From a virus: DNA of 32,925 nt. How positions within the stretch are numbered: the stretch's first letter is position 1; each line of letters opens with the position of its first letter. The position numbers were made by a program, and so were the translations under genes. The DNA lies in the IMG/VR virus record IMGVR_UViG_3300017969_002719, positions 1 through 32,925 of that record. One strand, given 5' to 3'. This document shows positions 8,080 through 32,925 of this stretch, piece by piece. Under the pieces are notes generated by a model that was given only the letters and a program-made list of their open reading frames with translations, had not been told where the DNA came from and did no database searches.

Positions 8080-8436
8080 ATGGATGAACGTTTAGAAAAA
8101 GCACTTGACTTTTCCAACTATATGACTACACTCAACAATCAAAAGCGTCTCCTCAAAGAAAAATACAATGACGATTTGATACATTTTTTTAGCGGCTGTC
8201 AATTTACCATAACTAGAGAACTTATAACCTTTTGTAGTACAATGTTGAATCTAGGACAAGATACAACGGTATTAATTGACGACAACGGCTTGCCTGCTTC
8301 TATTGATAACTTAGAAGATTTTTTAGAAGAAATTGTTGAAAAGTATTCTAGTGCATCTAACGATTATTATTCAGAATATAGTAATCTTAAGAAAAATAGA
8401 AAAGTGGAAAAATTAGTAGGATATGAGCAAGACTAA
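8080..8436 (+). CDS. Small conserved T4-like phage protein of unknown function
   Basis: This 118-residue protein has a good AGGAG ribosome-binding site 7 nt before the ATG. It begins MDERLEKALDFSNYMTTLNNQK and is acidic and mostly helical-looking. A lysine- and glutamate-rich segment lies at both ends, with no membrane segment and one CxF pair. I recall similar short proteins with the same opening in T4-like cyanophages, where they are hypothetical; this is from memory and unchecked. It is first in the transcript from the promoter at 7978-8006 and overlaps the next gene by 14 nt, so it is probably co-translated with the glycosyltransferases. No function is proposed. Confidence 0.75.
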   Translation: MDERLEKALDFSNYMTTLNNQKRLLKEKYNDDLIHFFSGCQFTITRELITFCSTMLNLGQDTTVLIDDNGLPASIDNLEDFLEEIVEKYSSASNDYYSEYSNLKKNRKVEKLVGYEQD

Positions 8437-9274
8437 AGGTGTATTTTTAATAGCCAAAAATAATTCACAAATTGACTATGTTAAGCAGGCTGTTTTTTTA
8501 GCAAAAAGAATAAAAAAATATTTAAATTTACCTACTACAGTAGCAACAGATTGCGTTGACTATTTAAAAGGTTCTTTTGATTCTAGTATATTTGATACTG
8601 TAATTGAACTAGATTGGACAGATGGAACAAACTCTAGGCTGTTCCATGATGGTGCTATGTCTCAAAGAACTGCAAGTTTTAAGAATAGTAATCGTGCAAG
8701 TGTCTACGAACTTTCTCCTTATGACGAAACTATTATAATGGACACTGATTATGTTGTGTCTAACAATATGTTATCAAATGTATTTGATCTAGATGTAGAT
8801 TTTGCTCTTTATAAAAATTCTAATGATATAGCAAAAGTTAGAAATGAAAATGAATTCAAATACATTACTGATTCTAGTGTAGATTTTTATTGGGCAACTG
8901 TTGTGTTTTTTAGAAAAACACCAACTAATAAAATATTCTTTGATTTAGTACAACACATAGAGCAAGAATGGACACATTACAAACGAACATACCAAATTAA
9001 TTCTTCACTTTTTAGAAATGACTTTGCATTTAGTATTGCTATTCATATTATGAATGGTTTTGAATCAGGAAGTTTTGCATCTCAGTTACCGGGTTCTATG
9101 CTTTACACAACCGACAAAGATATCCTTTGGAAACTACAAGATGACGAAATGATGTTTTTAGTTGAAAAGAAAGATTATTTAGGAGAATACACTGCAATCA
9201 AAACCAAAGGACAAAACATTCATGTAATGAATAAATTTAGTTTAGGTAGAATTATTGATGAGGTACCTCTATGA
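8423..9274 (+). CDS. Glycosyltransferase-like protein, GT-A fold with DxD (copy 1)
   Basis: This is a 283-residue protein. The N-terminus GVFLIAKNNSQIDYVKQAVFLAKRIKKYL looks like the first beta-alpha unit of a GT-A nucleotide-sugar fold. SPYDETIIMDTDYVV carries the metal-binding DxD at D107-T-D109. The gene downstream repeats the layout (SPYDETIVMDTDMLV), so the two are paralogs. The family resembles GT8-like phage transferases, which move a sugar from a nucleotide donor to an acceptor in the cytoplasm. Donor and acceptor are unknown. The start is ATG 8423, inside the end of the preceding gene, and the end overlaps the next gene as ATGA. The family is fairly sure; specificity cannot be read. 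Confidence 0.75.
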   Translation: MSKTKGVFLIAKNNSQIDYVKQAVFLAKRIKKYLNLPTTVATDCVDYLKGSFDSSIFDTVIELDWTDGTNSRLFHDGAMSQRTASFKNSNRASVYELSPYDETIIMDTDYVVSNNMLSNVFDLDVDFALYKNSNDIAKVRNENEFKYITDSSVDFYWATVVFFRKTPTNKIFFDLVQHIEQEWTHYKRTYQINSSLFRNDFAFSIAIHIMNGFESGSFASQLPGSMLYTTDKDILWKLQDDEMMFLVEKKDYLGEYTAIKTKGQNIHVMNKFSLGRIIDEVPL

Positions 9275-10113
9275 GTAAAGGTATAGTTGTTCTAGCACAA
9301 AACGGCGAAACAGATTATGTAATGCAAGCATGTTTGTTAGCAATGAGTTTACAAACACACAATAAAGAAACTAAAATTTCAGTTATTACTGATGACGATG
9401 TTCCTTTAAATTACCAAAAGTTTTTTGATAACATTATTCCGATCCCTTTTGGAGACGCTGCTGAAGAAAGTGAATGGAAAGTAGAAAATCGTTGGAAAAT
9501 CTATCATGCTAGTCCATATGATGAAACTATTGTAATGGATACTGATATGCTAGTTTTACAAAACATTGATAGATGGTGGGACTTCTTATCGAACTATGAG
9601 CTATTTTTTACAAACAAAGTACTAGACTATAGAGGAAACACTGCAAACACTAGTTATTATAGAAAAACATTTATTGATAATAATTTGCCTAATTTGTTTG
9701 CAGGATTTCATTACTTTAAAAAATCAGATTTTGCACAAGAATTTTATACATGGCTAGAACTTGTAATACAAAACTGGGAAGCATTTTACGAAAAAAATCT
9801 TACACCAGAAACTAGACCCAAACATGTAAGTATCGATGTTTGTGCAGCAATTGTTACTAAAATTTTAGACTGTGAAACTGAAATCACAAATTCTAAAACT
9901 AGTTTTCCAACATTTGTACATATGAAACCATATTGTCAAGGATGGGAACAAGTTAAATCAAGTTGGCAAGATAAGATACCAGTATATACGACAGAAAACT
10001 GCGAATTACAAATAGGCAACTATATACAATCAGGAATTTTTCATTATACAGAAAATAGTTTTATTGAAAAAACACCGGTTTTAAAAAGTTATAGGAGTTA
10101 TAATGGCGTCTAA
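9271..10113 (+). CDS. Glycosyltransferase-like protein, GT-A fold with DxD (copy 2)
   Basis: This 280-residue paralog of the preceding gene is joined to it by an ATGA overlap. GIVVLAQNGETDYVMQACLLAMSLQ aligns with the start of copy 1. HASPYDETIVMDTDMLVLQ carries DxD at D90-T-D92. The C-terminal half has FAGFHYFKKSDFAQEFYTW and HVSIDVCAAIVTKIL, the kind of acceptor-side elements seen in GT8-like enzymes. Cytoplasmic, with no signal or membrane segment. The two copies are well diverged, so they may add different sugars or act in sequence (inference). It overlaps the next gene by 11 nt. Confidence 0.75.
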   Translation: MSKGIVVLAQNGETDYVMQACLLAMSLQTHNKETKISVITDDDVPLNYQKFFDNIIPIPFGDAAEESEWKVENRWKIYHASPYDETIVMDTDMLVLQNIDRWWDFLSNYELFFTNKVLDYRGNTANTSYYRKTFIDNNLPNLFAGFHYFKKSDFAQEFYTWLELVIQNWEAFYEKNLTPETRPKHVSIDVCAAIVTKILDCETEITNSKTSFPTFVHMKPYCQGWEQVKSSWQDKIPVYTTENCELQIGNYIQSGIFHYTENSFIEKTPVLKSYRSYNGV

Positions 10114-11407
10114 TCTAGCTGAACTAATAACTAATTTAAAAGTAAAAGCAGCATCAAATGATGCATATGTGTATTATGACCAAGCAACTGGAAAAATACA
10201 CAAAGTTAGTGGCACAAAAGAAGATAGCGAATATGATGTACTAGCTGTTCCTATATATGATGCTAAACCTATTTTAAATGGTGAGTCAAATATTGACGAA
10301 TATACAGTAATTTACGACATAGTCGAAAAGCAAACTCGTTTGAAAAAAATAAATGCTGAACTAGCAGCAAATTCTCTTGGTAATTTTTGTTACGAACTTC
10401 CTAAGATTGAGTTTTCAAATATAAATCCGTTATACAAGTTTATAAAAGAGTATAAAGGTATTGATGTTTTTATTTGGAAACAAGGAGAAAAATATAACAA
10501 AGGTAATTTTGTATGGTTTGACAATAATGTTTACATTTTAAATGTAGATGTAAAGGCTGCTTCTAGTTTAGAAAATATCAGTAGAATATATATTAAAGAT
10601 GTATATATTCCAGACGTACCTACACCTACGCACGAAATTAATACTGGTAAAATGATTGTTAAAGAACAGCAGTATGTAGGAGTAAATGTTGATGTTTGGT
10701 ACGACGATGTTGAACACTACGAAGGTCAGCATATTTTTATAAACAACAAAGTTTATAAAATTAAAAAGAATCAACGCAAAGGTAGTAAGTTTAGAACAAA
10801 CAATGCTACTTTAGTCGAAAAAAATGTAAAGTTATATGATGACGAAAACAAAGACTTAGAATTTGAAAATGTTGATAATTATGAACTATTTTTAGATAAT
10901 AATAGTCTTTATATGTTTGTCGAAAAAGATAGCACTACTGAATTTGAAAATTACTCAACTGATAGAATAACACAATTTTATTATACCTCTAACAACAATA
11001 TTGTACACGGGGAAAATTTAAAAGATAATGTTAAATTTACAAACATTGAAGAACTTAAAAACGGAAGTTTAGTTTTATTAGAAAGACAATTATATAGAAT
11101 ACAGTCGGCTATAGATGTAGATATTGTACTAACACAAAATAAAATAAACAAAAAGTGGAACATTGCACTTCATCCATTAACTAAAAAGTTTTTAAAAACT
11201 TCATTTGCTAATTCTAATTCTATGCTTTATTTTAGTGTAACTTCTCCTAGCAATCCTAATGTTTTGTATAGAAGTTTGTCTTTTAAACTAAAAGAAATAT
11301 TGGAATCTACAGTTTCTTTTGATTTTGAATCAGACTATGAAACTGATGAAGTAAGCGTATATACATCAAAGTATTTTAATCATTATACACATGAGGTACT
11401 TGAGTAA
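10103..11407 (+). CDS. Unknown protein with two repeated aromatic beta modules
   Basis: I do not recognise this 434-residue protein. The N-terminus has DAYVYYDQATGKIHKVSG, a phrase seen in marine phage proteins of unknown role. Two internal segments resemble each other: about 120-147 (IDVFIWKQGEKYNKGNFVWF, then DNNVYIL) and about 196-222 (VDVWYDDVEHYEGQHIFI, then NNKVYKI). Both follow a pattern W/Y-x-x-x-x-x-Y-x-x-G-x-x-x-x-x-N-x-V-Y, similar to small carbohydrate-binding modules of the CBM5/12 type. It contains a single Cys (in NFCYEL) and is rich in Asn, Asp, Lys and Tyr. It could be a small fibre or decoration protein or a scaffold for the adjacent transferases; the carbohydrate-binding idea rests on spacing alone. 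Its start overlaps the preceding gene by 11 nt and its end overlaps the next as TAATG. Confidence 0.55.
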   Translation: MASNLAELITNLKVKAASNDAYVYYDQATGKIHKVSGTKEDSEYDVLAVPIYDAKPILNGESNIDEYTVIYDIVEKQTRLKKINAELAANSLGNFCYELPKIEFSNINPLYKFIKEYKGIDVFIWKQGEKYNKGNFVWFDNNVYILNVDVKAASSLENISRIYIKDVYIPDVPTPTHEINTGKMIVKEQQYVGVNVDVWYDDVEHYEGQHIFINNKVYKIKKNQRKGSKFRTNNATLVEKNVKLYDDENKDLEFENVDNYELFLDNNSLYMFVEKDSTTEFENYSTDRITQFYYTSNNNIVHGENLKDNVKFTNIEELKNGSLVLLERQLYRIQSAIDVDIVLTQNKINKKWNIALHPLTKKFLKTSFANSNSMLYFSVTSPSNPNVLYRSLSFKLKEILESTVSFDFESDYETDEVSVYTSKYFNHYTHEVLE

Positions 11408-12336
11408 TGTCAAAAATTTTTAAACCTATTGACTACGACATAATTTATCTAAGTTATGATGAACCAAATGCAGAAAAAAATTACGCAGACTTGTGTTCAA
11501 AAGTGCCCTGGGCAAAGCGTGTACACGGAGTAAAAGGTTCAGATGCTGCACACAAGGCTTGTGCTGAATTATCAGAAACTGAGCGGTTTATTACTGTTGA
11601 CGGCGACAATAGGATTAGGGAAGATTTTTTAAACCAAGAAATTGATTTTAACGAACACATGGATTTAGAAAATGCTGTAATAAGTTGGTGCGGCAGAAAC
11701 GAAATCAACGGGTTGCGTTATGGCAATGGTGGACTTAAATGTTGGCCTAAACAATATGTTTTACGTATGCGTACTCATGAAAATGCAGATCCAAATAATG
11801 CTCATGCCCAAGTAGACTTTTGTTGGGACGCTCATTACATACAAATGAACAGTACATATTCTGATGTATATAATAATGAAACACCTGCACAGGCTTGGAG
11901 AGCAGGATTTAGAGAAGGAGTAAAACTTGCCACTGATCGTGGTGTAAGAATTGCTAAAGAAGAATTTAAAAATAATCATTGGCGTTGCCTACATTGGCTG
12001 TACATTTGGAGTATGGTAGGTTCTGATGTTACTAACGGGCTTTGGGCTATATATGGTGCTAGAGAAGGGTTATATAAAACTATGTGTACAGACTGGGATT
12101 ATGTTAATGTTCGTGACTTTGAATATCTTAATAATTATTGGGATAATACTGTTTCAAAGAAAATCACCAATGATACATTATTAGAAGAAACTGTAGTATT
12201 AGGACAGCAACTAGTAAGTGAACTCAAATTACCTATAGCAGCAGCACCACTTGATAAAGATCAAAGTAAATTTTTTAAAGAAGTATATGAACATCCTGCT
12301 AGAACAGACCATCAAAGATTTATAGAAAAGTTGTAA
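11407..12336 (+). CDS. GT-A-like phage glycosyltransferase family protein (copy 1)
   Basis: This is a 309-residue protein. DIIYLSYDEPNAEKNYADL is followed by RVHGVKGSDAAHKACAEL, and then FITVDGDNRI with DxD-type residues D65-G-D67. These are the elements of a compact GT-A domain: a first strand, a donor-binding segment, and a metal-binding motif. GLRYGNGGLKCWPK and AWRAGFREGVKLA follow. A shorter paralog at 16886-17569 has the same order (RINGVKGIHQAH, WIVDADALI, IYGYGGVKLLPR, SWRSAFRECVKL). I recall such proteins only as uncharacterised marine phage genes, so the transferase call is structural inference. The start overlaps the previous stop by one base. Confidence 0.6.
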   Translation: MSKIFKPIDYDIIYLSYDEPNAEKNYADLCSKVPWAKRVHGVKGSDAAHKACAELSETERFITVDGDNRIREDFLNQEIDFNEHMDLENAVISWCGRNEINGLRYGNGGLKCWPKQYVLRMRTHENADPNNAHAQVDFCWDAHYIQMNSTYSDVYNNETPAQAWRAGFREGVKLATDRGVRIAKEEFKNNHWRCLHWLYIWSMVGSDVTNGLWAIYGAREGLYKTMCTDWDYVNVRDFEYLNNYWDNTVSKKITNDTLLEETVVLGQQLVSELKLPIAAAPLDKDQSKFFKEVYEHPARTDHQRFIEKL

Positions 12337-12337
12337 T

Positions 12338-13594
12338 ATGATTCCAATTTATGTAGACATAAAACCTCGAAAAAATAAACTTCCTTATGTTAACGGATTT
12401 ACTAAAAAGTTATACCGGAAGCATACAGCTAATCCTCAAGTGGATTTAGTAGACACAACACATCTTTATGCAGTGTTTGGTAATGATTTTGAACTTGTTT
12501 ATAAACCTATTTCTAAAATACCCAAGCGTAATAAGTTTACAAAAAAAGCACCAAAATTTTATTATCCAATACCACTTAGTCTTTGGTCAATAGAAACTGT
12601 ATTTGATCAAGTTGAGATAGAACCTGAAATTATTGAACAAATTAAAAAAGGTAATTGTAAAATATTGCTTCTTTGTCCATTTGAAGGATGGACATGGACT
12701 TGGTGGGATAGTCTTTTAGACATATTAAAATCTAAATATGACCTAAAAGAAAAACATGTTGTTTTTTTATCAGGAAATTATAATCCTCATCCTACTGTAA
12801 AAACAGTAACTTTTAATACTTGGGAACGGCAAATATACGGAAACTATAACGGAGATACACACTATAACACATTTATGAATGCTGTAGAGCGTCCTCGAAC
12901 ACATAAATTTATATGTTTAAATAGAAGACCTTCGATACATAGATATGCAACAGTAACGAGTTTATTTGATGTAAAAAAACAAGGAATTTTAACCTGTGCT
13001 AAGTCTGCAGGATACGGCAAAGATTATACTGATTGGGTTGAAGATTGTTTTTACCAAGACTATCCAGATCTAAAAGAAAAATATATCAACGAAGTAAAGC
13101 CGTTAATTCCGTTAACATACAATGATGGAATAAATCCTGAAGTTCAAAATCCTGCATCAAACGAATGGGGAAAAATAAGAAAATATTATGATAGTTATTT
13201 GTATATTGTAACAGAAACATTTTTTGAAAACAAAGCTCAAGGACAAGATACTTTATTTTTAAGTGAAAAAATGTTTAAGCCTATTGTTTTTATGCAACCT
13301 TTTGTTGCAATTGCTCGTCCTGGAACAGTAAAATTACTTAAAGAGTTAGGCTATAAAACATTTGGAGACTATATAGACGAATCCTACGACGATGTACTAG
13401 ACGATAAAACAAGACTAAAAATGGCTATTACTAGTATAAACACTTTTATAAGCAGGACTCATGAAGAATTAAACAAACTTATGATAGAAATGAAACCTAT
13501 ATTTGAACATAATTATAGATTGCTAAAAGAAAGACACGATGTTACAATATATAAAAATCTCAAAGAAGATTTAATGAATGCACTTATGGAATAG
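12338..13594 (+). CDS. Glycosyltransferase-like protein, LNRR...DESYDD family (copy 1)
   Basis: This is a 418-residue protein. KILLLCPFEGW near 155-165 looks like the start of a Rossmann-type domain. FICLNRRPSIHR at about 191-202 and LSEKMFKPIVFMQPFVAIAR from about 308 follow. LGYKTFGDYIDESYDD ends near 352. This layout, a basic arginine-rich motif, an SEK-x-F-K-P loop, then G-F/Y-K-T-F, is shared by a group of marine phage proteins that look like GT-B transferases; this comes from memory and is not proven. The gene at 29766-31007 shares the LGYKTFG and DESYDD part. Sugar and acceptor are unknown. One nt separates it from the upstream gene. Confidence 0.6.
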   Translation: MIPIYVDIKPRKNKLPYVNGFTKKLYRKHTANPQVDLVDTTHLYAVFGNDFELVYKPISKIPKRNKFTKKAPKFYYPIPLSLWSIETVFDQVEIEPEIIEQIKKGNCKILLLCPFEGWTWTWWDSLLDILKSKYDLKEKHVVFLSGNYNPHPTVKTVTFNTWERQIYGNYNGDTHYNTFMNAVERPRTHKFICLNRRPSIHRYATVTSLFDVKKQGILTCAKSAGYGKDYTDWVEDCFYQDYPDLKEKYINEVKPLIPLTYNDGINPEVQNPASNEWGKIRKYYDSYLYIVTETFFENKAQGQDTLFLSEKMFKPIVFMQPFVAIARPGTVKLLKELGYKTFGDYIDESYDDVLDDKTRLKMAITSINTFISRTHEELNKLMIEMKPIFEHNYRLLKERHDVTIYKNLKEDLMNALME

Positions 13595-13597
13595 ATA

Positions 13598-14872
13598 ATG
13601 ACAAAACCACTTTTTGATAGATTAAAATCCACAGAAAAATTTTGTATAATGCCGTGGATACATTGTGCAACACAAACAAACGGCGCAGTGCAACTATGTT
13701 GTGTTGCTTCTCCTATACACGAATTAAATCTTAATAATATGACTTGGGAAGAAATTTGGAATAGTCCGCAATACAAAGAAGTTCGCAAAAAGATGCTCAA
13801 CAATGAACCTGTCAAGTACTGTAATAGTTGTTATAAAGAAGAAGCTGCTGGAGTCAGAAGTCATAGACAGAACGAAAACGATGTTTGGGCAAATCAATGG
13901 AGCCCTATAAAAATAAATGAACTAAGACAAATTGTTGCAGAAACAAATGAAGACGGTTCTATAGATAGCGGCATTGTTAGTGTTGATTTTAGATTAGGCA
14001 ATACTTGTAATTTACAGTGTATAATGTGTAGACCACATGATAGCAGTAAATGGCTTAATCATTCTAAAATACTTGCAAAAAATTTAACTAGTGAAGCTAA
14101 GTGGGATTGGGAACATAAAAGTAATATTGTTGTTGAACAGTTCGAATGGTATAGAAACCAAGCGTTTTGGGATAGCTTTTATAAAGATGTACATAATATT
14201 AGAGATCTTATTTTTGCAGGAGGAGAGCCTCTACTAATTAAACAACACAAAGACTTAATAAAATATCTTGTAGAAATTGATCATGCTAAAAATGTAGAAA
14301 TACGTTATCATACAAATGCCACTGTTGTAGACGAAGAATTGTTAGAGCTTTGGACTCACTTTAAGAAAACACACATTATGGTAAGTTTAGATGCGCACGA
14401 AGATTTAAATTCTTATATTAGATATCCTTCAAAGTGGGATGAAGTAGTAAAGAATTTAAAAACATTTGATAATACTACTGGCGGCGACATTATTGTAGAC
14501 ATTAACACTACTGTTCAGGCACTTAACATCTATTGGCTACCAGAATTTGCTGAATGGCTTTGGTCGCAAAACTTTAAAAAAATAGGAAAAAGAACAAGAC
14601 GTAACGGACTATTTCACGCTGCTACACTACATTGGCCTCAATATCTTTGTACAAAGGTTTTATCTGCTGAATCAAAAAAACGAGTAGAAGAAAAGTTAAG
14701 AAACTTTATGGCAAAATATCCAGACAACAGCGAAGTACAACAATGGAGCGGATTAATAGATTTTATGAATAGTGAAGACTGGAGTGATAAGTTAGACCAA
14801 ACACTTGATTATTTAAAAACCTTAGACAATATGCGTCCTGTTAAATTTCCAGAAATTTATGAGTTAATATAA
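13598..14872 (+). CDS. Radical SAM protein with N-terminal twitch/SPASM-like domain (copy 1)
   Basis: This is a 424-residue protein. The radical SAM core motif is C137-x3-C141-x2-C144 in NTCNLQCIMCRP, with FAGGEPLL as the SAM-contacting GGEP motif. Ahead of the core is an auxiliary Fe-S region: C16 in FCIMPWIHC, C34-C35 after a G-x-V-x-L pattern, and C75-x2-C78. This reads like a SPASM/twitch domain placed before the core rather than after it, as in the family known as N-terminal twitch radical SAM proteins. Such enzymes use a 5'-deoxyadenosyl radical to abstract hydrogen from substrates; the substrate here is unknown. Paralogs are at 20195-21574 and 23430-24698. It ends in a TAATG overlap with an SGNH hydrolase. 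Confidence 0.85.
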   Translation: MTKPLFDRLKSTEKFCIMPWIHCATQTNGAVQLCCVASPIHELNLNNMTWEEIWNSPQYKEVRKKMLNNEPVKYCNSCYKEEAAGVRSHRQNENDVWANQWSPIKINELRQIVAETNEDGSIDSGIVSVDFRLGNTCNLQCIMCRPHDSSKWLNHSKILAKNLTSEAKWDWEHKSNIVVEQFEWYRNQAFWDSFYKDVHNIRDLIFAGGEPLLIKQHKDLIKYLVEIDHAKNVEIRYHTNATVVDEELLELWTHFKKTHIMVSLDAHEDLNSYIRYPSKWDEVVKNLKTFDNTTGGDIIVDINTTVQALNIYWLPEFAEWLWSQNFKKIGKRTRRNGLFHAATLHWPQYLCTKVLSAESKKRVEEKLRNFMAKYPDNSEVQQWSGLIDFMNSEDWSDKLDQTLDYLKTLDNMRPVKFPEIYELI

Positions 14873-15612: not shown

Positions 15613-15656
15613 ATTAAAAATACTTAGATAACTATAAGAATATAAGAGGAAAAAAT
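15613..15656 (+). promoter_or_regulatory. Spacer with AT-rich possible promoter and ribosome-binding site
   Basis: This 44-nt gap is one of the few real spacers in the plus-strand run. It holds AGAGGA seven nt before the ATG at 15657. The octamer AATAAATT at 15608-15615 is one base off the NATAAATA late motif. A clear sigma70 -35 box is not visible. An internal promoter is possible but weakly supported. Confidence 0.25.
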
Positions 15657-25943: not shown

Positions 25944-26632
25944 ATTTTTTGTAAAACTCTTTCTATAAACTCTATAGGATAATTATTTCTAAAACTATTC
26001 CAGCATAATTTATCCATAGTTTCGAATGTCTGCGGAGTATTCCACTCAATACCTAAAGTTTCTAAATGCTCTCGCATTTTATCTTGACGTGTACTGTATA
26101 TGTGACTTTCTACATCTGCAATACTAAAGTTAGGTTCGGTGTTATGGTATGTAAAAAAGTAATTAATACTTTTTAGTTTTCCATCTATTACAAAATAACT
26201 TGAAGGATGCATTGAATATTTGTGAAGGCCTAAACTTTTATGTGCATTAATTATTTCGATCATTTGATCTTGCCAGTCCGGTAACACATTATCATAATTT
26301 TCTGTTAAGCAACCTGCACGATTCCAAAAATCTTTTCCGTCAATTTCTAAATAAATTTTACGGTTTGTAGTATCAATCTCTTTTATTTTAGGAACAAGCT
26401 CGGGAAAATTTTCAGTCATTAGAGTTAAGTATTTTACTTCTCTATCAAATTTTTCTTGCATTAGACTAGGATCAACTACTTGATTTTGTCCTTTATGGTA
26501 TTCTCCGTCATTATAATACCATTGTACAAATGTAGTCAAATTAGAATCAACAAGACTTGTATAAATTAAATTGTTTCTACAGAGTCCAGTTCCGGGTATG
26601 TCGTTAAAATAATACTCAAACTTAGTATTCAT
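25940..26632 (-). CDS. Kinase-like fold protein lacking catalytic residues (copy 1)
   Basis: This is a 230-residue protein. MQEKFDREVKYLTLMTENFPELVPKI looks like a kinase alpha-C helix with E65. PDWQDQMIEIINAHKSLGLHKYSMHPSSYFVIDGKLKSINYF matches the usual H-x-D...N catalytic loop and D-F-G region of aminoglycoside or lipopolysaccharide kinases. The catalytic Asp is absent at HPSSYF and the DFG Asp is replaced (SINYF). I infer a pseudokinase or a strongly diverged phosphotransferase. A smaller paralog is at 28013-28567. It is the first gene of the inner minus-strand operon, divergent with 27 nt from an oxygenase gene. Confidence 0.5.
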   Translation of the reverse strand: MNTKFEYYFNDIPGTGLCRNNLIYTSLVDSNLTTFVQWYYNDGEYHKGQNQVVDPSLMQEKFDREVKYLTLMTENFPELVPKIKEIDTTNRKIYLEIDGKDFWNRAGCLTENYDNVLPDWQDQMIEIINAHKSLGLHKYSMHPSSYFVIDGKLKSINYFFTYHNTEPNFSIADVESHIYSTRQDKMREHLETLGIEWNTPQTFETMDKLCWNSFRNNYPIEFIERVLQKI

Positions 26633-26659: not shown

Positions 26660-27475
26660 ATGATAAGAGGAATTGGCGGAAAACCGTATATTAACTTAGA
26701 TCCTTACTTAGACATAGAAGGATTCAAAAATTTGCATCCTGAAATATGTCGAGGATTTGCACTAGCACGAGATTATGCAAAAGAAGGCACGTGGATGGCA
26801 CCCGGGTTTGATTGGAAAGATTGTAGTTACACTATTAATTGGAAGCCTATATACAAGGCATGGGAAGAATATCAAGCATTACCAGACGATAATCCTATTA
26901 AGATAGAAGGCAATAAAATATTACCTACTAATTTTGGTGACTATAAACAACGAAATATTTTTACACGTTATTTAAAAGCTACTCTAGATGCTAACGATCC
27001 TTACATATATTATTTTTTATGGAATGAAGGCGATTGGAACGAACGCAATGCCGAACGTCAAAAAACAGAAGAAAGCTCATATTTTCCAGGAGCAGTTAAA
27101 TGGGTAGAAAATTTAGTTACAGAAGGTGTTATTGATCAAATAGGACGTGTGATATTTTTTCATTGTGATCATAACGGAAGAGCATTTGAACACAGAGATT
27201 TAGATGCAAACAATGGCGTCATGGACGATAAACAATATAGTCCGCACAACAACGAATTTATACACATACGCTATCGTACAAAAAGAGGATTTTATATATG
27301 GGATCCAGAAACACAAAACAAGCACTATCTAAATTGTCATGCAGGTTTTTGGAATGACCAAGATTGGCATGGAGGTGAAGAATCTAAAGAAATTGAATAC
27401 GGTATGCGAGTTGATTGTAAGTTTACACCAGAGTTTAGAAAAGTACTTGGTATAAATACTTTAGAATTTTATTAA
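26660..27475 (+). CDS. 2OG-Fe(II) oxygenase-like protein (largest copy)
   Basis: This is a 271-residue protein. AFEHRDLDAN gives the iron ligands H178-x-D180, DWHGGEE gives the distal H237, and GMRVDCKF supplies R250 for the 2-oxoglutarate carboxylate. This is the usual H-x-D...H...R triad plus arginine of the double-stranded beta-helix fold. These enzymes hydroxylate or desaturate a substrate while turning 2-oxoglutarate to succinate and CO2. It is a lone plus-strand gene between two minus-strand genes, ending with a 4-nt convergent overlap with another oxygenase. Substrate unknown; a hydroxylated amino acid, peptide or sugar fits the context. Confidence 0.75.
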   Translation: MIRGIGGKPYINLDPYLDIEGFKNLHPEICRGFALARDYAKEGTWMAPGFDWKDCSYTINWKPIYKAWEEYQALPDDNPIKIEGNKILPTNFGDYKQRNIFTRYLKATLDANDPYIYYFLWNEGDWNERNAERQKTEESSYFPGAVKWVENLVTEGVIDQIGRVIFFHCDHNGRAFEHRDLDANNGVMDDKQYSPHNNEFIHIRYRTKRGFYIWDPETQNKHYLNCHAGFWNDQDWHGGEESKEIEYGMRVDCKFTPEFRKVLGINTLEFY

Positions 27476-28020
27476 CCCCATATATTAAAAAGATACTTTG
27501 GAGTTAGTCCTGCATTTGCACCAGCATGCCAGCTTTTTCTATCTGGCCATTGATATACATTTCCTTGTGCTTCATTATATAAACAAGTATCGTCTAAAAT
27601 AAAAATATGTCCAGGTCTAGGAATATCTATATGACAATGAAATCTTTTAAGATCTCCACTAGCATCTAACGTTTTTTCGTCATCTGTAATATCCCAATGC
27701 CACGGTGCAACATCGCCTGGTAATACTTTACTAATCCAACAATTTATATACGATTTCATTCCGACAAAATCCATAAATGTTGTAACTATTTCTTTGGGGA
27801 ATTGTTCGCCCGGAAAATGCATTTCCCAACTAGCATTACCGCCTTCTGCTTTAAATTTATAACCTGCATCACGCAACGGTGCTGCAACTTCCAGAACACC
27901 TTCTACATGATGTCCTACATCGTGTCTTGGACCTATGTACGCAGGTGTAGAATTGTTTACACATTCAATAACTGCATTCCAGTCTATTATGTTATTACAG
28001 TTTCCTATAAATTTAACCAT
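27472..28020 (-). CDS. 2OG-Fe(II) oxygenase-like protein
   Basis: This is a 182-residue protein. LPGDVAPWHWDITD gives H108-x-D110, preceded by the typical P-G entry loop. RPGHIFILDDTCLYNEAQGNVYQWPDRKSWHAGANAG carries the distal H165. A basic residue ten positions later is K175, which can take the place of the usual Arg for 2OG binding. Resembles the small aspartyl/asparaginyl-hydroxylase type of phage oxygenases. Start ATG at 28020 overlaps the stop of the kinase-like gene by 8 nt. Substrate unknown. Confidence 0.75.
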   Translation of the reverse strand: MVKFIGNCNNIIDWNAVIECVNNSTPAYIGPRHDVGHHVEGVLEVAAPLRDAGYKFKAEGGNASWEMHFPGEQFPKEIVTTFMDFVGMKSYINCWISKVLPGDVAPWHWDITDDEKTLDASGDLKRFHCHIDIPRPGHIFILDDTCLYNEAQGNVYQWPDRKSWHAGANAGLTPKYLFNIWG

Positions 28021-28567
28021 TTAAAAAATTCCCAGGCCAGTTTCCTATGTTTTGTTTTATTGTATATTCATATGTATCTTTGATATTTAAAATGCCGTTT
28101 TCAAATTGAAATCTATTTTTGTCGTTTATAACATCTCCAATAGCATCTTGTTTTATTTCGTCATCGTGACATAGACAGGCATGTAAATCCATTATACAAA
28201 TTTTATCGTTTTTTACAAAAAAAGTATGTGGATATATATTAAGTTTATATAATCCTGCATCCTTTAAGTCTTGTAGAATATACTTAATTTGTTCTCTCCA
28301 GTCATTTGGTAAATTTTTGTTAAAATGAAATAAATGATTTAGATTAGTATCATACCACTTAAATTTAATTTCTTTTTCTAAAGAGTTAACAGAAGTAATC
28401 TCAGGAGCATACCATTTGTGAGATATTAATCCTATGCCTCTTATTTCTTGGTTAAACCAAAACGAATCTTTAAATTTCATTACAAATGTGTCATCGTCAT
28501 AAAGCCCGTCATATATAGGTGTTGCTTGACATAAGTTGCCATCTATATATTTTTTAAATGGAGTCAT
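28013..28567 (-). CDS. Kinase-like fold protein, diverged (copy 2)
   Basis: This 184-residue protein is a paralog of 25940-26632. TFVMKFKDSFWFNQEIRGIGLI places K31 and E41 at the ATP-binding Lys and alpha-C Glu positions. PNDWREQIKYILQDLKDAGLYKLNIYPHTFFVKNDKICIMDLHA aligns with the catalytic loop and ends in MDLH at the DFG Asp position (D127). The catalytic loop Asp is missing (NIYPHTFF). Unlike copy 1 it keeps the Lys, Glu and metal-binding Asp, so it may still bind nucleotide. No signal or membrane segment. It sits between two oxygenases; start overlaps the upstream stop by 14 nt. Confidence 0.5.
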   Translation of the reverse strand: MTPFKKYIDGNLCQATPIYDGLYDDDTFVMKFKDSFWFNQEIRGIGLISHKWYAPEITSVNSLEKEIKFKWYDTNLNHLFHFNKNLPNDWREQIKYILQDLKDAGLYKLNIYPHTFFVKNDKICIMDLHACLCHDDEIKQDAIGDVINDKNRFQFENGILNIKDTYEYTIKQNIGNWPGNFLNG

Positions 28568-29237
28568 AAATTACTCTTGTGTCTAAGTTAAGTTTGTCTA
28601 CTGCTTTTTCTAATTCAGATATTGAATCTTTTTCTAACATAAAAGAAATTGATTTGTCGTTATTTTGTTTGAAATTTGATAATTTATTATTTTTGTTCCA
28701 GTAATTTAACTTTGGACTAATAAATTGATCTACAACATATCTATAATTTTCAGGAGGATTGTTAATAGATAAATTTACTCCTACTGGAGCAGTTAGTGTA
28801 TTTTTATTCAGTAGTTTTCTAACAACCAATTGATATCTACTAGCATCTCCAAAATTTACTGCACTATGTAGTCTTCCGGCATCCATAATATACCAAATAC
28901 CTGGCAGTGTTTGGTGCATGTCTTTTTTGTCTAAGTCTACTAGATAGCTTTCACCTTTTTGTAATGCCAAATGCCATCTATCATCAATGTCAGAATGCAT
29001 AGCATAACACGTTTTAATGTCTAGTTTTATAATTCTAGCTTCGCCTCGATCGCTAGGCAAACTATCAATAATTTCTTCCCAAACAGTATTTTTAAATTCG
29101 TCTTTAATTTCCCAAGGATCGTAAAAGAAATCACCAGTAGGTTGATTTAAACTTAATTTAAAATCAATATTGGGTAAGGAGTTACGTGCTTCATCCATTA
29201 ATTTGTTTGAAACAACAAGTGAAATTCTTTCAATCAT
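28554..29237 (-). CDS. 2OG-Fe(II) oxygenase-like protein with C-terminal extension
   Basis: This is a 227-residue protein. CYAMHSDIDDRWHLAL gives H81-x-D83; GRLHSAVNFGDASRYQLVVR gives distal H124 and R134, exactly ten residues later. This is the aspartyl/asparaginyl-hydroxylase-like arrangement. About 85 residues beyond the oxygenase core, rich in Asn, Lys and Ser, are not recognised. First gene of this minus-strand operon and divergent by 38 nt from the next oxygenase gene. Substrate unknown. Confidence 0.75.
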   Translation of the reverse strand: MIERISLVVSNKLMDEARNSLPNIDFKLSLNQPTGDFFYDPWEIKDEFKNTVWEEIIDSLPSDRGEARIIKLDIKTCYAMHSDIDDRWHLALQKGESYLVDLDKKDMHQTLPGIWYIMDAGRLHSAVNFGDASRYQLVVRKLLNKNTLTAPVGVNLSINNPPENYRYVVDQFISPKLNYWNKNNKLSNFKQNNDKSISFMLEKDSISELEKAVDKLNLDTRVIYDSI

Positions 29238-29275
29238 AACATATTTATGATATAAAGTAGGGTTATAAATACGTT
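29238..29275. promoter_or_regulatory. Divergent spacer with mirrored late-promoter octamers
   Basis: On the plus strand TATAAATA at 29264-29271 is a perfect T4 late octamer ending 4 nt before the ATG at 29276. On the minus strand CATAAATA (29249 down to 29242) also fits NATAAATA and ends 4 nt before the ATG at 29237. The two 15-mers ending in ATG, TATAAATACGTTATG and CATAAATATGTTATG, differ at two positions. If these are used, transcripts would start at or near the start codon. Confidence 0.55.
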
Positions 29276-29776
29276 ATGACTGTGCATATTGAACCTTTTT
29301 GGAATGATTTCTATAAAAAACTCAACTATACTACTGAACATTTCAAAGATCCTAATCAAGTTGAACATTGGAAAAACAGTGGACACGATTTAGAAAAATT
29401 AACAATTGATGTATATCAATTGTCGTATACCAATGAATTTACAGAAACAGTTAAATCTTATTTTCCTAATCTTAAACATATTGGCATTGCAATACATCGA
29501 TTAGTTCCTGGTAACTATCTTCCAGTACATCAAGACAAATATGGATTTTATTCTAAAAAATATAATGTTACAGATTTAAACAACATAAAACGCTACGTCA
29601 TATTTTTAGAAGATAGTGTACCAGGGCATATGCTAGTTGTAAACAACGACTGTTTTACAAATTGGAAATCGGGCAACGTTAAATCTTGGCAAGGTGAAAC
29701 ACCTCACAGTGCTATAAATTTAGGTATGCACAATAGATATACTTTACAAGTTACAGGCATTGTTAATGAAATCTGA
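29276..29776 (+). CDS. 2OG-Fe(II) oxygenase-like protein (small)
   Basis: This is a 166-residue protein. LVPGNYLPVHQDKYG gives H85-x-D87 after the P-G entry loop, GETPHSAINLGMHNRYTLQV gives H144 and R154. The full H-x-D...H...R set is present in a minimal oxygenase core, so it is probably active. Together with four other oxygenases it marks hydroxylation as a main chemistry of the island. It overlaps the next gene by 11 nt. Substrate unknown. Confidence 0.8.
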   Translation: MTVHIEPFWNDFYKKLNYTTEHFKDPNQVEHWKNSGHDLEKLTIDVYQLSYTNEFTETVKSYFPNLKHIGIAIHRLVPGNYLPVHQDKYGFYSKKYNVTDLNNIKRYVIFLEDSVPGHMLVVNNDCFTNWKSGNVKSWQGETPHSAINLGMHNRYTLQVTGIVNEI

Positions 29777-31007
29777 TAGAATAATTTTATTAGAAAATTT
29801 CAATGGAACCTCATGTTTAATATTGGAAGACTGTAGTCGTGTGTTATTAGCTGATTACGATAGCGGCGAAGAACATTTCTATTCTCCTAAGATACAAGAC
29901 TTTAAAAATTATATAGAGTTATTAGGAAATATAAATGTTCCTTATATGATGTTTAACAATACGTTTGAGTCAGTGCAATTCAACACTCTAAAATACGATA
30001 GCTCAACAGTTGATTTTTTAAACAAACAAGGTTTGCACATTTTTTTAACTGAAAATCTAATGAAATACGATAGTGATAGAGTATATCATTCAAGAAGGGC
30101 AAAACAAAACTTTTTGCAACTTAATAATGATAATGGCATAAACGCAGGAATTTTTAATAATCCACGCTGCGGACAATTAGATAGTATACAAGATTTTGTT
30201 AATAACAACAATTTAAATAACGTAACAGTTTATACTTCTGAACACGGTGTTTCAAAAGCATTTTTGAGATATAAAAATTTAAAGTTTGCATGGAAAGATT
30301 TATTTTTACAGCAGTACATAAAACAAAATATTGATAAATCTGTTGTACAAAAACAAAAAATAAAATATACGTTTGTTAATTCAAATTGGAGATATGAACC
30401 TTATAGACATATCATAGCAGCATATCTTAAAAATTATAACTCTAAAATTAGTTGGAGTTATAAATCTACACAAGAAAACTTTAAAAGAAATATTTGGTTC
30501 GAACCTAATAACAAGCTACTGAATGGTTTTAAAAAATTAAATGAAACAGTTCCTTTGTCGTTAGATGTTAATGTTAAAAATCCTACAGTATTAGAAGGCA
30601 ACATTTTAGATAGATTTAAGTTACCAGAATTTGATAATGTGCCAGATATGCCAAACACAATATATTCTGATGCATTCTGTAGTATTGTAAATGAATCAAG
30701 TTTTTTAGATATTACTAGTTACATAAGCGATAAAACTTTATCTGCAATTTTTAACCATATGCCTTTTGTAATTGTTGGACCGCCAAAGTCTCTGCAAACT
30801 GCAAAAGATATGGGCTTCAAAACTTTTGGTAATTATTGGGACGAATCCTATGATGATGAATTTGATCATACAAAACGTATGTATAAAATTTTTGATGTTA
30901 TAGATACTATTGCAGCATATAGCAATGAAGAACTAGCCAGGATCCAGCAAGACATGCAATCGTTGCTGATATATAATAAGCAGCAAATAAAAAATTTAGA
31001 GTTATAA
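29766..31007 (+). CDS. Glycosyltransferase-like protein, DESYDD family (copy 2)
   Basis: The start is ATG 29766 (413 residues); TTG two codons upstream is less likely. IILLENFNGTSCLILEDCS begins the protein, YTFVNSNWRYEPYRHIIAAYL occupies the place of LNRRPSIHR in the 12338-13594 gene, and ISDKTLSAIFNHMPFVIVGPPKSL leads to GFKTFGNYWDESYDDEFDHT, with DESYDD at 359-364. The C-terminal third is therefore paralogous to that gene while the N-terminal half is much diverged. Family role inferred as transfer of a sugar; evidence is weaker than for copy 1. It ends directly before the next oxygenase gene. Confidence 0.55.
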   Translation: MKSDRIILLENFNGTSCLILEDCSRVLLADYDSGEEHFYSPKIQDFKNYIELLGNINVPYMMFNNTFESVQFNTLKYDSSTVDFLNKQGLHIFLTENLMKYDSDRVYHSRRAKQNFLQLNNDNGINAGIFNNPRCGQLDSIQDFVNNNNLNNVTVYTSEHGVSKAFLRYKNLKFAWKDLFLQQYIKQNIDKSVVQKQKIKYTFVNSNWRYEPYRHIIAAYLKNYNSKISWSYKSTQENFKRNIWFEPNNKLLNGFKKLNETVPLSLDVNVKNPTVLEGNILDRFKLPEFDNVPDMPNTIYSDAFCSIVNESSFLDITSYISDKTLSAIFNHMPFVIVGPPKSLQTAKDMGFKTFGNYWDESYDDEFDHTKRMYKIFDVIDTIAAYSNEELARIQQDMQSLLIYNKQQIKNLEL

Positions 31008-31529
31008 ATGAGTATAGATTATTCAGTCTTTGACTGGCAAGAGACATATATGATAGACGAAGTCCCTGCAGATGATGTTTGGGAAAATTTTGCTACGGTA
31101 AAAAAATTAAACTTAGAATCGCACTATCGTAATCTTAACATGCCAAAAGAATGTTCTAAACATTTTATGGCGTTCTCTCCAACACTAGATGATACATTAA
31201 CTTCTTACATAGAACCTTTCAAAGATAAAAAACATCATTATAACTTTTTAAAACTTACCCCTGGTTACAATCTTTGGATGCATTATGATAGCTATTCTAC
31301 TTTTGTGCGTTATAACAACATTACAGAAGTACAATCAGAAAATATCAATAGAACTATTGTAATGCTCACAGACTGGGAACCCGGACAAGTACTACAAATA
31401 AAAAATGATACACATACTAAATGGAGTGTAGGAGACACATATTCTTGGAGTGCATACGCTTGGCACGGTGTTGGTAACTTTGGTTTTACAGATTTTGTAG
31501 TAATGCAAATTACGTGGTTAGACGAATGA
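31008..31529 (+). CDS. 2OG-Fe(II) oxygenase-like protein lacking the usual 2OG arginine
   Basis: This 173-residue protein starts at ATG 31008 with no gap. LTPGYNLWMHYDSYST gives H92-x-D94 after the P-G loop, SAYAWHGVGNFGFTDFVVMQ gives distal H153. Where other copies carry Arg or Lys ten residues after this His, here there is F163, and no basic residue is near. Either a different residue binds 2OG or the protein has another cofactor role. Its end overlaps the aminotransferase as ATGA. Substrate unknown. Confidence 0.7.
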   Translation: MSIDYSVFDWQETYMIDEVPADDVWENFATVKKLNLESHYRNLNMPKECSKHFMAFSPTLDDTLTSYIEPFKDKKHHYNFLKLTPGYNLWMHYDSYSTFVRYNNITEVQSENINRTIVMLTDWEPGQVLQIKNDTHTKWSVGDTYSWSAYAWHGVGNFGFTDFVVMQITWLDE

Positions 31530-32425
31530 GCTATACTTATGATAAAAAACATTTGCCTTTTGGACACTCTACTGCTGTAAACGATAGCACAGTACTAGAT
31601 GTTATAAAAACTATAAGTTTAGAAAACTTTGGTGATGTTGATATTAACAGAACTTTTTGTAAAGAATATTTAGAATGGATTAAACGTCATCCTAATACAT
31701 TTAAAGGACTAGACGAATTCAAATATGCTGTTTATTCGCACGGCACAAGTGAAGCATTTGATAAATTTTATTTAAAAAATTTAAACAGACGGTTTAGAAT
31801 TTTTAAATCGGAATATTTGTACCATCAGCTTGCATGGCGAAACAGCAATTTAGATTGGGCATATATTGAGGATACTAAACTTGATAAAAACGATGCAGTA
31901 ATTATAAGTTATCCTTTTGCTGACACAGGAAACAAACATGAACAAATGGATTTTATATTACATAATTGTGATGCATTAGGTATTCCTGTACTAATAGACT
32001 GTGCATATTATACAATTAGTTCAGGACTTGAATTTGATTTTACTCATAAGTGTATTACTGATATAACTTTTAGTTTGAGTAAAATGTTTCCTGTTGCACA
32101 CGCACGAATTGGTATGCGTTTAACACGAAAAGATGATGACGATACATTATTTGTTTATGAAAAAGCAAACTATCAAAATAGACTAGGTGCAATACTAGGT
32201 TTAGAATTAATTAAAAATTTTGAACCAGATTATATAGTAAACAAGTATAAAGATACACAAATAAAATTTTGTAATCTTACAAATACTGAACCAAGTTCTA
32301 CTGTCCTTTTTGGATTAGGTAATGGAATTTGGAACGATTACAATCGTGGAGGTATCACTAACAGACTTAGCTTCCACAATTATTTAGACAAAGGAGTTTT
32401 AGATGGCAGTACAATCGAACAATGA
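31526..32425 (+). CDS. PLP-dependent aminotransferase-like protein (fold type I)
   Basis: The start is ATG 31526 in an ATGA overlap; a GTG four codons upstream is less likely. The 299 residues are short for a fold type I enzyme. SHGTSEAF (72-79) is the phosphate-binding segment, IDCAYYTIS carries D158 that contacts the PLP ring nitrogen, and FSLSKMFPVAHARIGMRL has the Schiff-base lysine K186. These follow the class I/II order. It would convert a ketone or aldehyde to an amine using an amino donor, or act as a related PLP enzyme. The end overlaps the amidinotransferase by 23 nt, so the two products may work in succession: amine made here, guanidinylated next. That sequence is inference. Confidence 0.75.
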   Translation: MSYTYDKKHLPFGHSTAVNDSTVLDVIKTISLENFGDVDINRTFCKEYLEWIKRHPNTFKGLDEFKYAVYSHGTSEAFDKFYLKNLNRRFRIFKSEYLYHQLAWRNSNLDWAYIEDTKLDKNDAVIISYPFADTGNKHEQMDFILHNCDALGIPVLIDCAYYTISSGLEFDFTHKCITDITFSLSKMFPVAHARIGMRLTRKDDDDTLFVYEKANYQNRLGAILGLELIKNFEPDYIVNKYKDTQIKFCNLTNTEPSSTVLFGLGNGIWNDYNRGGITNRLSFHNYLDKGVLDGSTIEQ

Positions 32426-32925
32426 TTGGGATCCATTAGAAGAGATTTTTGTTGGTACAGCAAAGGGTGCAGTACTACCTACAATGGACCCGAGTGTTCG
32501 TAGTTTTTCTTATGCTACTTATAGTGAAGAAGAACTTGTAGGCTTAGAAGGACCACATGACAAACAAATTATGGAAGAGGCAGAAGAAGATTTAGATATC
32601 TTGGCCGACACACTAACTAAGTTAGGCATTAAAGTACATCGTCCTACTCCTACTGATCACAGTAAAGAATTTAGTTCACCTGACTGGACTACTACTGGCT
32701 GGTATAGCTTTTGCCCAAGAGATTTGTTATTACCGTTAGATAACATGATTATTGAATGTAGCAGTCCTATGAGAGCAAGGCAGTATGAAACTAGAGTGTA
32801 CTATGATTATTTGTATCAGCAAATGAAAGAAGGCACACAGTGGATTAAAAGTCCTTCACCTATACTAAAGGACGACTTATATCAATTTGACGATTTAAGT
32901 GTCCCTACGGTGCGTAACAATGAAA
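32403..32925 (+). CDS. Glycine/inosamine-type amidinotransferase, 3'-truncated by window edge
   Basis: The ATG at 32403 follows AAGGAG by 6 nt and gives 174 codons before the window ends. WDPLEEIFVGTAKGAVLP is the N-terminal hallmark of glycine amidinotransferase and streptomycin-type inosamine-phosphate amidinotransferase. VHRPTP and TTGWYSFCPRDLLL, then NMIIECSSPMRARQYE, match the same family through the first half. The active-site His and Cys lie beyond the window. The family transfers an amidino group from arginine to an amine, leaving ornithine. With an aminotransferase directly upstream, a guanidino-sugar or guanidino-amino acid product is possible. Confidence 0.88.
   Translation, partial: MAVQSNNDWDPLEEIFVGTAKGAVLPTMDPSVRSFSYATYSEEELVGLEGPHDKQIMEEAEEDLDILADTLTKLGIKVHRPTPTDHSKEFSSPDWTTTGWYSFCPRDLLLPLDNMIIECSSPMRARQYETRVYYDYLYQQMKEGTQWIKSPSPILKDDLYQFDDLSVPTVRNNE

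What the first reader, a model, noticed from the sequence alone, without database searches (positions are those of the whole stretch)
8080..32925. Dense phage-encoded modification island with seven radical SAM enzymes and five oxygenases
Between the fibre genes and the window end almost every gene is an enzyme: seven radical SAM proteins, five 2OG-Fe(II) oxygenases, five glycosyltransferase-like proteins plus a more diverged sixth, two SGNH hydrolases, a nucleotide-sugar dehydrogenase, a PP-loop enzyme, a methyltransferase, an aminotransferase and an amidinotransferase. The motifs are seen; the combined role is inference: synthesis and attachment of an unusual glycan or modified peptide on the virion or host surface.
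Basis: partly seen in the sequence, partly recalled or inferred. Interest (0 to 1): 0.85.

Follow-up and report, generated by a model that had tools for sequence, protein, structure and literature searches.

The report
Fibre-linked enzyme island in marine phages
This uncultured marine T4-like phage carries, right behind its tail-fibre genes, a block of sugar-transfer and radical-chemistry enzymes that is fixed next to the fibres in hundreds of related phage sequences; it most likely builds and attaches an unusual sugar decoration to the virus's own receptor-binding parts, although its real target is still unproven.

Summary
Seven radical SAM genes are confirmed. Five oxygenase motifs, a sugar dehydrogenase, a PP-loop enzyme and a strong StrB1-type amidinotransferase are also there. 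A near-identical longer contig ends the island 3.7 kb past the window, adds an eighth radical SAM gene and an epimerase, and closes it with a tropism-determinant protein. Two of the six "glycosyltransferases" and the "methyltransferase" stay unverified.

In 74/74 loci found through one gene, and 66/66 found independently through another, the fixed order is fibre gene, 118-aa protein, GT8, GT8, adhesin-like protein, GT2-like enzyme, then usually a radical SAM enzyme. What follows is exchangeable; related contigs hold 2-22 radical SAM genes (median 8). No cultured phage searched carries the fixed genes. Two sub-modules recur: GT2+MT+radical SAM (also chromosomal in Bdellovibrionota) and oxygenase-aminotransferase-amidinotransferase.

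All island proteins look soluble, and 115 noncoding bases leave no room for a peptide precursor. I favour cytoplasmic decoration of virion fibres or adhesins (about 0.42) over host-surface remodelling (about 0.27). The general kind of island is published (pelagimyophage host recognition cluster; a T4-like genome with 12 radical SAM genes). The fixed cassette, its chromosomal counterpart and the guanidinylation module were not found described.

The parts
122..7974 (+). Fibre/structural genes (122-928, 966-2453, 2463-3413, 3478-7974) that precede the cassette; the last is a 1498-aa, 31% Ser+Thr protein whose distal part is variable among relatives
   Evidence: PHROG tail/virion matches; fibre order conserved in relatives; DNA similarity breaks at about 4.4-8.05 kb; S/T content
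8080..8436 (+). 118-aa conserved boundary protein, function unknown; first gene of the fixed cassette
   Evidence: Always followed by GT8a (74/74, 66/66); alignment A11; no match in cultured phages
8423..9274 (+). GT8a, GT8-type glycosyltransferase
   Evidence: Profile matches glycogenin, E about 1e-5, invariant DxD
9271..10113 (+). GT8b, paralogue of GT8a
   Evidence: Same family by profile; in the alignment that matches glycogenin
10103..11407 (+). Adhesin-like protein with conserved ends and a variable middle holding two CBM5/12-like modules
   Evidence: Alignment A2; AlphaFold pLDDT 76; Foldseek: phage 7-7-1 tail fibre 9rkv, Milano receptor-binding complex 8fqc, chitin-binding modules
11407..12336 (+). 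GT2a, unclassified GT-A-like enzyme, marker of the cassette
   Evidence: AlphaFold pLDDT 85.5; Foldseek top hits SunS, TarP, RmlT, E 3e-4, TM about 0.3; over 570 IMG/VR relatives
12338..13594 (+). Putative glycosyltransferase (unverified), family shared with 29760-31007
   Evidence: Family found by profile; no PDB or Pfam support
13598..14872 (+). Radical SAM 1, N-terminal twitch/SPASM type
   Evidence: NF033640 374 bits; PF04055, SPASM
14872..15612 (+). SGNH-hydrolase-like protein
   Evidence: GDS motif only; no Pfam match
15657..16883 (+). UDP-glucose/nucleotide-sugar dehydrogenase
   Evidence: PF03721, PF00984; phrog_9148 4e-91; TIGR03026
16886..17569 (+). GT2b, paralogue of GT2a
17553..18599 (+). 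Radical SAM 2
   Evidence: PF04055
18566..19603 (+). Radical SAM 3
   Evidence: PF04055; rS3/5/6 are one family
19593..20195 (+). Putative methyltransferase that travels with GT2 in phages and Bdellovibrionota; fold unverified
   Evidence: Linkage; no Pfam match
20195..21574 (+). Radical SAM 4, N-terminal twitch type
   Evidence: NF033640 388 bits
21571..22548 (+). Radical SAM 5
   Evidence: PF04055
22526..23446 (-). Radical SAM 6
   Evidence: PF04055
23430..24698 (-). Radical SAM 7, N-terminal twitch type
   Evidence: NF033640 328 bits
24688..25275 (-). SGNH-hydrolase-like protein
   Evidence: GCS at the usual GDS position; distantly related to the SGNH protein at 14872
25263..25943 (-). PP-loop ATPase-fold enzyme
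   Evidence: SGGADS motif; profile matches GMP/NAD synthetases, ThiI, E 4e-4 to 2e-3; weak QueC
25940..26632 (-). Unclassified protein (pair with 28013-28567)
   Evidence: No confident PDB match
26660..27475 (+). Putative 2OG-Fe(II) oxygenase OG1 (motif only)
   Evidence: HxD...H
27472..28020 (-). 2OG-Fe(II) oxygenase-like OG2
   Evidence: HxD...H; one family with OG4 and OG5
28013..28567 (-). Unclassified protein, paralogue of 25940-26632
28554..29237 (-). 2OG-Fe(II) oxygenase OG3, Asp beta-hydroxylase type
   Evidence: Profile matches 7v4f 4e-16 and Pro cis-4-hydroxylase 3e-8; PF05118 weak
29276..29776 (+). 2OG-Fe(II) oxygenase-like OG4
29760..31007 (+). Putative glycosyltransferase (unverified)
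   Evidence: Family with 12338-13594
31008..31529 (+). 2OG-Fe(II) oxygenase-like OG5, first gene of the oxygenase-AT-AMT module
31514..32425 (+). PLP aminotransferase-like (AT)
   Evidence: PF00155 0.003, SLSK, 3if2 0.001
32403..32925 (+). Amidinotransferase (AMT), cut by the window end; 352 aa on the longer contig
   Evidence: Full copy matches StrB1 1bwd 4e-84, SxtG 4e-57; longer contig

Best explanation
The island is the enzyme half of the phage's host-recognition module. A fixed cassette (118-aa protein, two GT8 enzymes, an adhesin-like protein, a GT2-like enzyme) is encoded directly behind the fibre genes. It is followed by an exchangeable set of tailoring modules: GT2b + putative MT + twitch-type and other radical SAM enzymes; oxygenase + aminotransferase + StrB1-type amidinotransferase; UDP-sugar dehydrogenase + epimerase. 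Inferred mechanism: in the infected cell's cytoplasm these soluble enzymes make tailored sugars (oxidised, aminated, guanidinylated, remodelled by radical chemistry) and the GT8/GT2 enzymes place them on newly made fibre or adhesin proteins before assembly. Swapping tailoring modules together with fibre tips would change how the virion tip binds, or how it is recognised. Shown here: the anatomy, the linkage, the modularity, solubility and enzyme classes. Inferred: the product, the acceptor and the purpose.
For: Core order anchor-GT8a-GT8b-(adhesin)-GT2a in 74/74 loci ascertained through GT2a, the gene before it structural in 66 of 71 with a listed predecessor, median gene overlap 6-8 bases inside the cassette. 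Independent ascertainment through the 118-aa protein: GT8a next in 66/66, GT8b 65/66, GT2a 54/54, radical SAM downstream in 46/48 (some contigs are in both sets). Radical SAM genes: 1 of 303 upstream genes, 247 of 920 downstream. The cassette contains an adhesin-like gene with carbohydrate-binding modules and a variable middle. The right end is bounded by a Mtd_N tropism-determinant protein. DNA similarity among relatives breaks at the fibre tip, the adhesin middle and after GT2a. Island content covaries with fibre identity beyond GT2a relatedness. No transmembrane segments in any of 39 proteins scanned from this phage; 0 of 943 island proteins in relatives have 4 or more. Oxygenase in 42/45 and AT in 38/45 loci that hold AMT.
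Against: No acceptor or product is known. The fibre/content covariation is weak and could partly reflect shared ancestry. GT2a fold similarity is distant (TM about 0.3). The adhesin call rests on a pLDDT-76 model and local module matches. Chromosomal relatives of GT2, MT and the radical SAM enzymes sit near ordinary GTs and membrane proteins, which would suit cell-surface glycans. A published reading of similar islands favours host O-chain modification (PMC7029224). The TM scan is a simple hydropathy threshold.
Confidence: 0.42

Rival explanations
1. Host-surface remodelling: the enzymes alter host O-chain or capsule sugars made in the cytoplasm on lipid carriers, changing the receptor and excluding other phages.
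For: Proposed in the literature for pelagimyophage host-recognition clusters with GT8, UDP-glucose dehydrogenase and radical SAM cassettes (PMC7029224). Chromosomal Bdellovibrionota relatives lie beside GTs and membrane proteins. UGD and epimerase are typical of surface glycan loci.
Against: No flippase, polymerase, GtrA/GtrB-like or other membrane protein in this island, and none with 4+ TM segments in 943 island proteins of relatives. Invariant coupling to fibre genes and an internal adhesin gene is not required by this model.
Confidence: 0.27
2. Virion protein side-chain modification without a glycan as end product: radical SAM and Asp-hydroxylase-type enzymes act directly on residues of fibre or adhesin proteins, GTs adding simple sugars.
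For: Twitch/SPASM-type radical SAM enzymes often act on peptides (general knowledge); OG3 resembles Asp beta-hydroxylase and Pro hydroxylase.
Against: OG-AT-AMT, UGD and epimerase point to small-molecule/sugar chemistry. No recognition domain for a peptide was found.
Confidence: 0.13
3. A small-molecule or RiPP-type product (bioactive compound) made during infection.
For: The enzyme mix resembles natural-product clusters: StrB1-type amidinotransferase, many radical SAM enzymes, PP-loop enzyme.
Against: 115 noncoding bases and no small ORF leave no place for a precursor peptide in the window; no exporter; position fixed behind fibres.
Confidence: 0.1
4. Hypermodification of phage DNA by oxygenases and glycosyltransferases.
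For: Other phages use TET-like oxygenases and GTs for this (general knowledge; a review passage in PMC12619734).
Against: The island sits in the structural region behind fibres; its oxygenases are small and, where classifiable, of amino-acid hydroxylase type; no pyrimidine-modifying enzyme was recognised. Not tested experimentally.
Confidence: 0.04

Closest known systems
Host recognition cluster (HRC) of pelagimyophages (Zaragoza-Solas et al. 2020, PMC7029224)
   Same: Hypervariable island after the baseplate/VrlC genes with tail fibres, GT8 enzymes, UDP-glucose dehydrogenase and radical SAM cassettes.
   Different: That paper, in the passages read, does not describe the fixed 118aa-GT8-GT8-adhesin-GT2a cassette, the oxygenase-AT-AMT module or the chromosomal counterpart. 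The cultured type phage HTVC008M has four 2OG oxygenase genes in the same place but none of the cassette families in the 100 kb examined.
T4-like environmental genome TARA_ERS488813_N000010 with 12 radical SAM genes (Nishimura et al. 2017, PMC5332604)
   Same: T4-like marine phage with many radical SAM genes.
   Different: There interpreted as Fe-S metabolism; no fibre-linked cassette discussed in the passages read. Only 5 of 39 relatives here carry an A-type Fe-S carrier gene.
Radical SAM cluster of Vibrio jumbo phages such as K566
   Same: Three radical SAM genes close together among unnamed genes.
   Different: About 23% identity, and no structural gene is annotated in the 31 kb shown around it.
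Virion glycosylation in mycobacteriophages (cited in PMC12619734)
   Same: Phage-encoded GTs glycosylate structural proteins.
   Different: No radical SAM, oxygenase or amidinotransferase tailoring known to me.
Streptomycin-type guanidinylation (StrB1, PDB 1bwd)
   Same: AMT is closest to StrB1 (4e-84) and is encoded next to a PLP aminotransferase.
   Different: No cyclitol pathway; here with an oxygenase in a phage fibre island.

Membership tests
Host recognition cluster of marine T4-like phages | Island in the structural region directly after baseplate/VrlC-like genes and containing tail fibres | tested here: met
   On the longer contig G002: gp53/gp25/gp6-like genes, a 5153-aa protein, fibres, then the island; gp6-like gene matches baseplate wedge proteins of many T4-like phages
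Host recognition cluster of marine T4-like phages | Right border at neck gene gp14 | tested here: inconclusive
   No HTVC008M gp13-15 match on G002, whose contig ends soon after; right border seen is a Mtd_N protein and a VWA protein
Host recognition cluster of marine T4-like phages | Hypervariable content between relatives | tested here: met
   Mean Jaccard 0.11 downstream of GT2a at 40% identity clusters; content turns over while GT2a stays 60-85% identical
NF033640 twitch-domain radical SAM | Score above the curated cut-off of 170 bits | tested here: met
   374, 388 and 328 bits for three of seven; the other four far below
GT8 (glycogenin-type) | Profile similarity to GT8 structures and a DxD motif | tested here: met
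   Glycogenin E about 1e-5, invariant D107 and D109; Pfam GT8 itself not matched
Known GT2 family | Sequence match to a GT2 Pfam/PDB entry | tested here: not met
   No Pfam or PDB sequence match; only a distant GT-A-like fold
StrB1/AGAT amidinotransferases | Full-length similarity and C-terminal GGxHC motif with catalytic Cys | tested here: met
   1bwd 4e-84 over residues 3-350; GGFHCNT present
Prokaryotic viperins | NCBIfam NF038283 cut-off of 180 bits | tested here: not met
   Best 48 bits, generic radical SAM core only
RiPP biosynthetic cluster | Precursor peptide gene beside the maturase | tested here: not met
   115 noncoding bases in 24.8 kb, longest gap 44 bases
O-antigen/seroconversion locus | Membrane flippase, polymerase or Gtr proteins | tested here: not met
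   No TM protein in this island
Virion glycosylation system | Glycan demonstrated on a virion protein | not testable with these tools
   Needs mass spectrometry

The most novel reading that the evidence does not exclude
A large uncultured group of marine T4-like phages coats its receptor-binding tips with exotic, guanidinylated and radical-SAM-tailored glycans made by exchangeable modules. The GT2-radical SAM core is shared with Bdellovibrionota chromosomes; the direction of transfer is unknown. This would be a new class of virion modification, with up to 22 radical SAM genes per phage contig.
Probability: 0.3. Interest if true: 0.88.

Novelty: new variant of a known kind. Interest (0 to 1): 0.63.

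Why it matters
If right, abundant ocean phages decorate their own receptor-binding parts with chemistry otherwise known from antibiotic and cofactor pathways, and the modular swaps give a direct way to ask how host range or phage competition is tuned. Independently of function, the fixed GT8-GT8-adhesin-GT2 cassette is a simple marker for a large uncultured phage group. The GT2a family (no Pfam, PHROG or PDB match, over 570 viral loci) and the oxygenase-AT-AMT module are concrete enzyme targets.

Tried and rejected
Megablast of the island and tblastn of GT2a, GT8b and the 118-aa protein against cultured phages: no match. Viperin-type defence or antiviral role: rejected, matches are generic radical SAM core only. 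7-deazaguanine DNA modification from QueC/QueE-like matches: weak and scattered, not pursued. Fe-S supply genes as part of the system: only 5 of 39 relatives have an A-type carrier, so not a constant part. I first labelled 25940-26632 and 28013-28567 as aminoglycoside-phosphotransferase-like from reading the sequence; the profile search did not support this and the label is withdrawn. GT label for 12338-13594 and 29760-31007 could not be verified. Scan of genomes for GT2: 18 of 291 Bdellovibrionota, 1 of 399 Pseudomonadota, that one being the centre genome itself. A diverse alignment of the 118-aa protein was too variable to search with and was replaced by a closer set.
Full report
WHAT THE WINDOW IS. 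The window is a 32,925-base IMG/VR virus record. A 75,652-base contig (IMGVR_UViG_3300018424_003600, called G002) contains it at 99.94% identity over its whole length; the position on the reverse complement of G002 equals window position + 34,949. G002 gives the context: recombination genes gp46/47, baseplate genes including gp53-, gp25- and gp6-like genes, a 5153-aa protein, fibre genes, the island, then further structural and VWA genes. The gp6-like protein matches baseplate wedge proteins; 121 phage records match, all under 60% identity and the best at about 36%. It is therefore a T4-like phage of an uncultured group.

THE OBSERVATION. All seven radical SAM genes are real: PF04055 over cut-off in each, intact CX3CX2C. 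Three belong to NCBIfam NF033640, radical SAM proteins with an N-terminal twitch domain, at about twice the cut-off. They fall into three families: rS1/4/7, rS3/5/6 and rS2. The five oxygenases have HxD...H; one has firm support as an Asp beta-hydroxylase-type enzyme. GT8a/b match glycogenin by profile. GT2a has no sequence relative in Pfam, PHROGs or PDB, but a confident model (pLDDT 85.5) resembles GT-A enzymes SunS, TarP and RmlT, with low TM. The two proteins of the GTx family, the methyltransferase and the SGNH proteins stay motif-level or unverified. Beyond the window end the island continues with the full amidinotransferase, an eighth, weakly B12-binding radical SAM protein, a third SGNH-like protein and an NAD-dependent sugar epimerase (window-equivalent 32403-36646). 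It then meets a protein with a Major tropism determinant N-terminal domain.

LINKAGE TO FIBRES. Searching IMG/VR with a GT2a alignment gave more than 570 relatives, of which 80 were fetched. In all 74 loci that contain the 118-aa protein, the order 118-aa protein, GT8a, GT8b, one gene, GT2a is exact. The gene before is structural in 66 of 71 with a listed predecessor, and successive genes in the cassette overlap by a median of 6-8 bases. Because those loci were chosen through GT2a, I repeated the search through the 118-aa protein: GT8a follows in 66/66, GT8b in 65/66, GT2a in 54/54 with enough room, and a radical SAM gene downstream in 46/48 (some contigs are shared by both sets). The five relatives found earlier through a radical SAM protein show the same order at 53-57% GT2a identity. 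Upstream of the 118-aa gene 1 of 303 genes is radical SAM; downstream 247 of 920 are. Whole related records hold 2-22 radical SAM genes, median 8. The seven in this window are therefore typical for the group, not exceptional.

FIXED AND VARIABLE PARTS. DNA similarity between the window and close relatives (about 67-76%) runs through the fibre N-terminal region, then 118aa-GT8a-GT8b, then GT2a. It breaks at the distal part of the big fibre, in the middle of the 10103-11407 protein, and after GT2a. That protein has conserved ends and, in this lineage, an insert with two W/Y-G-V-Y modules. Its model (pLDDT 76) matches phage 7-7-1 tail fibres, the Milano receptor-binding complex and CBM5/12 chitin-binding modules locally. 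I read it as an adhesin; this is moderately supported. Gene content after GT2a has low overlap between loci (mean Jaccard 0.11) and covaries weakly with the identity of the preceding fibre protein after allowing for GT2a relatedness (partial rho 0.20, p 0.003-0.016 by permutation).

TWO RECURRING CHEMISTRY MODULES. First, GT2 (a and/or b), the putative MT, twitch radical SAM, rS2- and rS3-type radical SAM and often AT are clustered on Bdellovibrionota chromosomes, in contigs of up to 2.0 Mb. The GT2 family occurs in 18 of 291 sampled Bdellovibrionota and only 1 of 399 Pseudomonadota, the centre genome itself. In a 52-sequence tree, GT2a and GT2b are separate groups. Phage members form one group in each (100/98 and 100/97), with bacterial members outside. 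Branches are long and the root is a midpoint, so direction of transfer is not established. Second, among 45 other viral loci that encode the amidinotransferase, an OG2-family oxygenase is present in 42 and AT in 38, often as oxygenase-AT-AMT in a row as in this window. Oxidation, transamination and amidination is a coherent route to a guanidino compound; this is inference. The amidinotransferase is closest to StrB1. Several of the 45 loci are near-duplicates, so they represent fewer independent lineages.

WHERE THE PRODUCT ACTS. None of the 39 proteins scanned from this phage has a predicted TM segment; none of 943 island proteins in relatives has four or more. Only 115 of 24,846 bases are noncoding. 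So the island offers neither a flippase, polymerase or Gtr-type protein nor room for a precursor peptide. Cytoplasmic modification of newly made virion proteins is the simplest reading. Host glycan intermediates on the inner membrane face remain possible, and the authors of the pelagimyophage study favour host O-chain modification (PMC7029224).

KNOWN AND NEW. Host-recognition clusters with fibres, GT8, UDP-glucose dehydrogenase and radical SAM cassettes are published (PMC7029224), and so is a T4-like genome with 12 radical SAM genes (PMC5332604). Not found in the papers searched: the invariant cassette with its internal adhesin, the GT2a family, the chromosomal counterpart and the amidinotransferase module. 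The cultured phage HTVC008M lacks these families in the 100 kb examined but has four oxygenase genes at the same place.

LIMITS. ORFs in relatives were called by a simple script. Loci are ascertained by similarity and not phylogenetically independent. The papers library is open-access only, and only selected passages were read. No product, acceptor or expression data exist here.

Noticed in passing
G009 (IMGVR_UViG_3300044846_001128), reverse-complement 17960-19028; G005 141960-142286: A-type Fe-S carrier genes (and, by reading the sequence, an IscU-like gene in G009) lie directly downstream of the radical SAM cassette in one sub-lineage; only 5 of 39 records have the carrier.
   Followed up: partly
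L152, L156, L196, L197, L199, L203 (Bdellovibrionota chromosomes): A recurring pair of a small membrane-anchored-looking protein and a larger HTTM/carboxylase-like membrane protein sits beside the chromosomal GT2/radical SAM module; it was not seen in the phage islands.
   Followed up: no
G728, the record holding L110 (117,247 bases): 22 radical SAM genes in one viral contig; the listed ones lie between about 62 and 105 kb.
   Followed up: no
window 19593-20195 and relatives: The putative methyltransferase family has no Pfam, PHROG or NCBIfam match, yet follows GT2b directly in 31 adjacent gene pairs.
   Followed up: partly
L079, L104, L117, L119, L128, L130, L131, L133: The Mtd_N tropism-determinant-like gene (right border here) lies inside the island, just before GT2b, on the opposite strand, suggesting recombination around tropism genes.
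   Followed up: no
L151, L145, L146 and similar MAG contigs: Phage contigs with the full cassette are binned into Bdellovibrionales, Neomarinimicrobiota and Rickettsiales MAGs; the host of the group is not settled.
   Followed up: no
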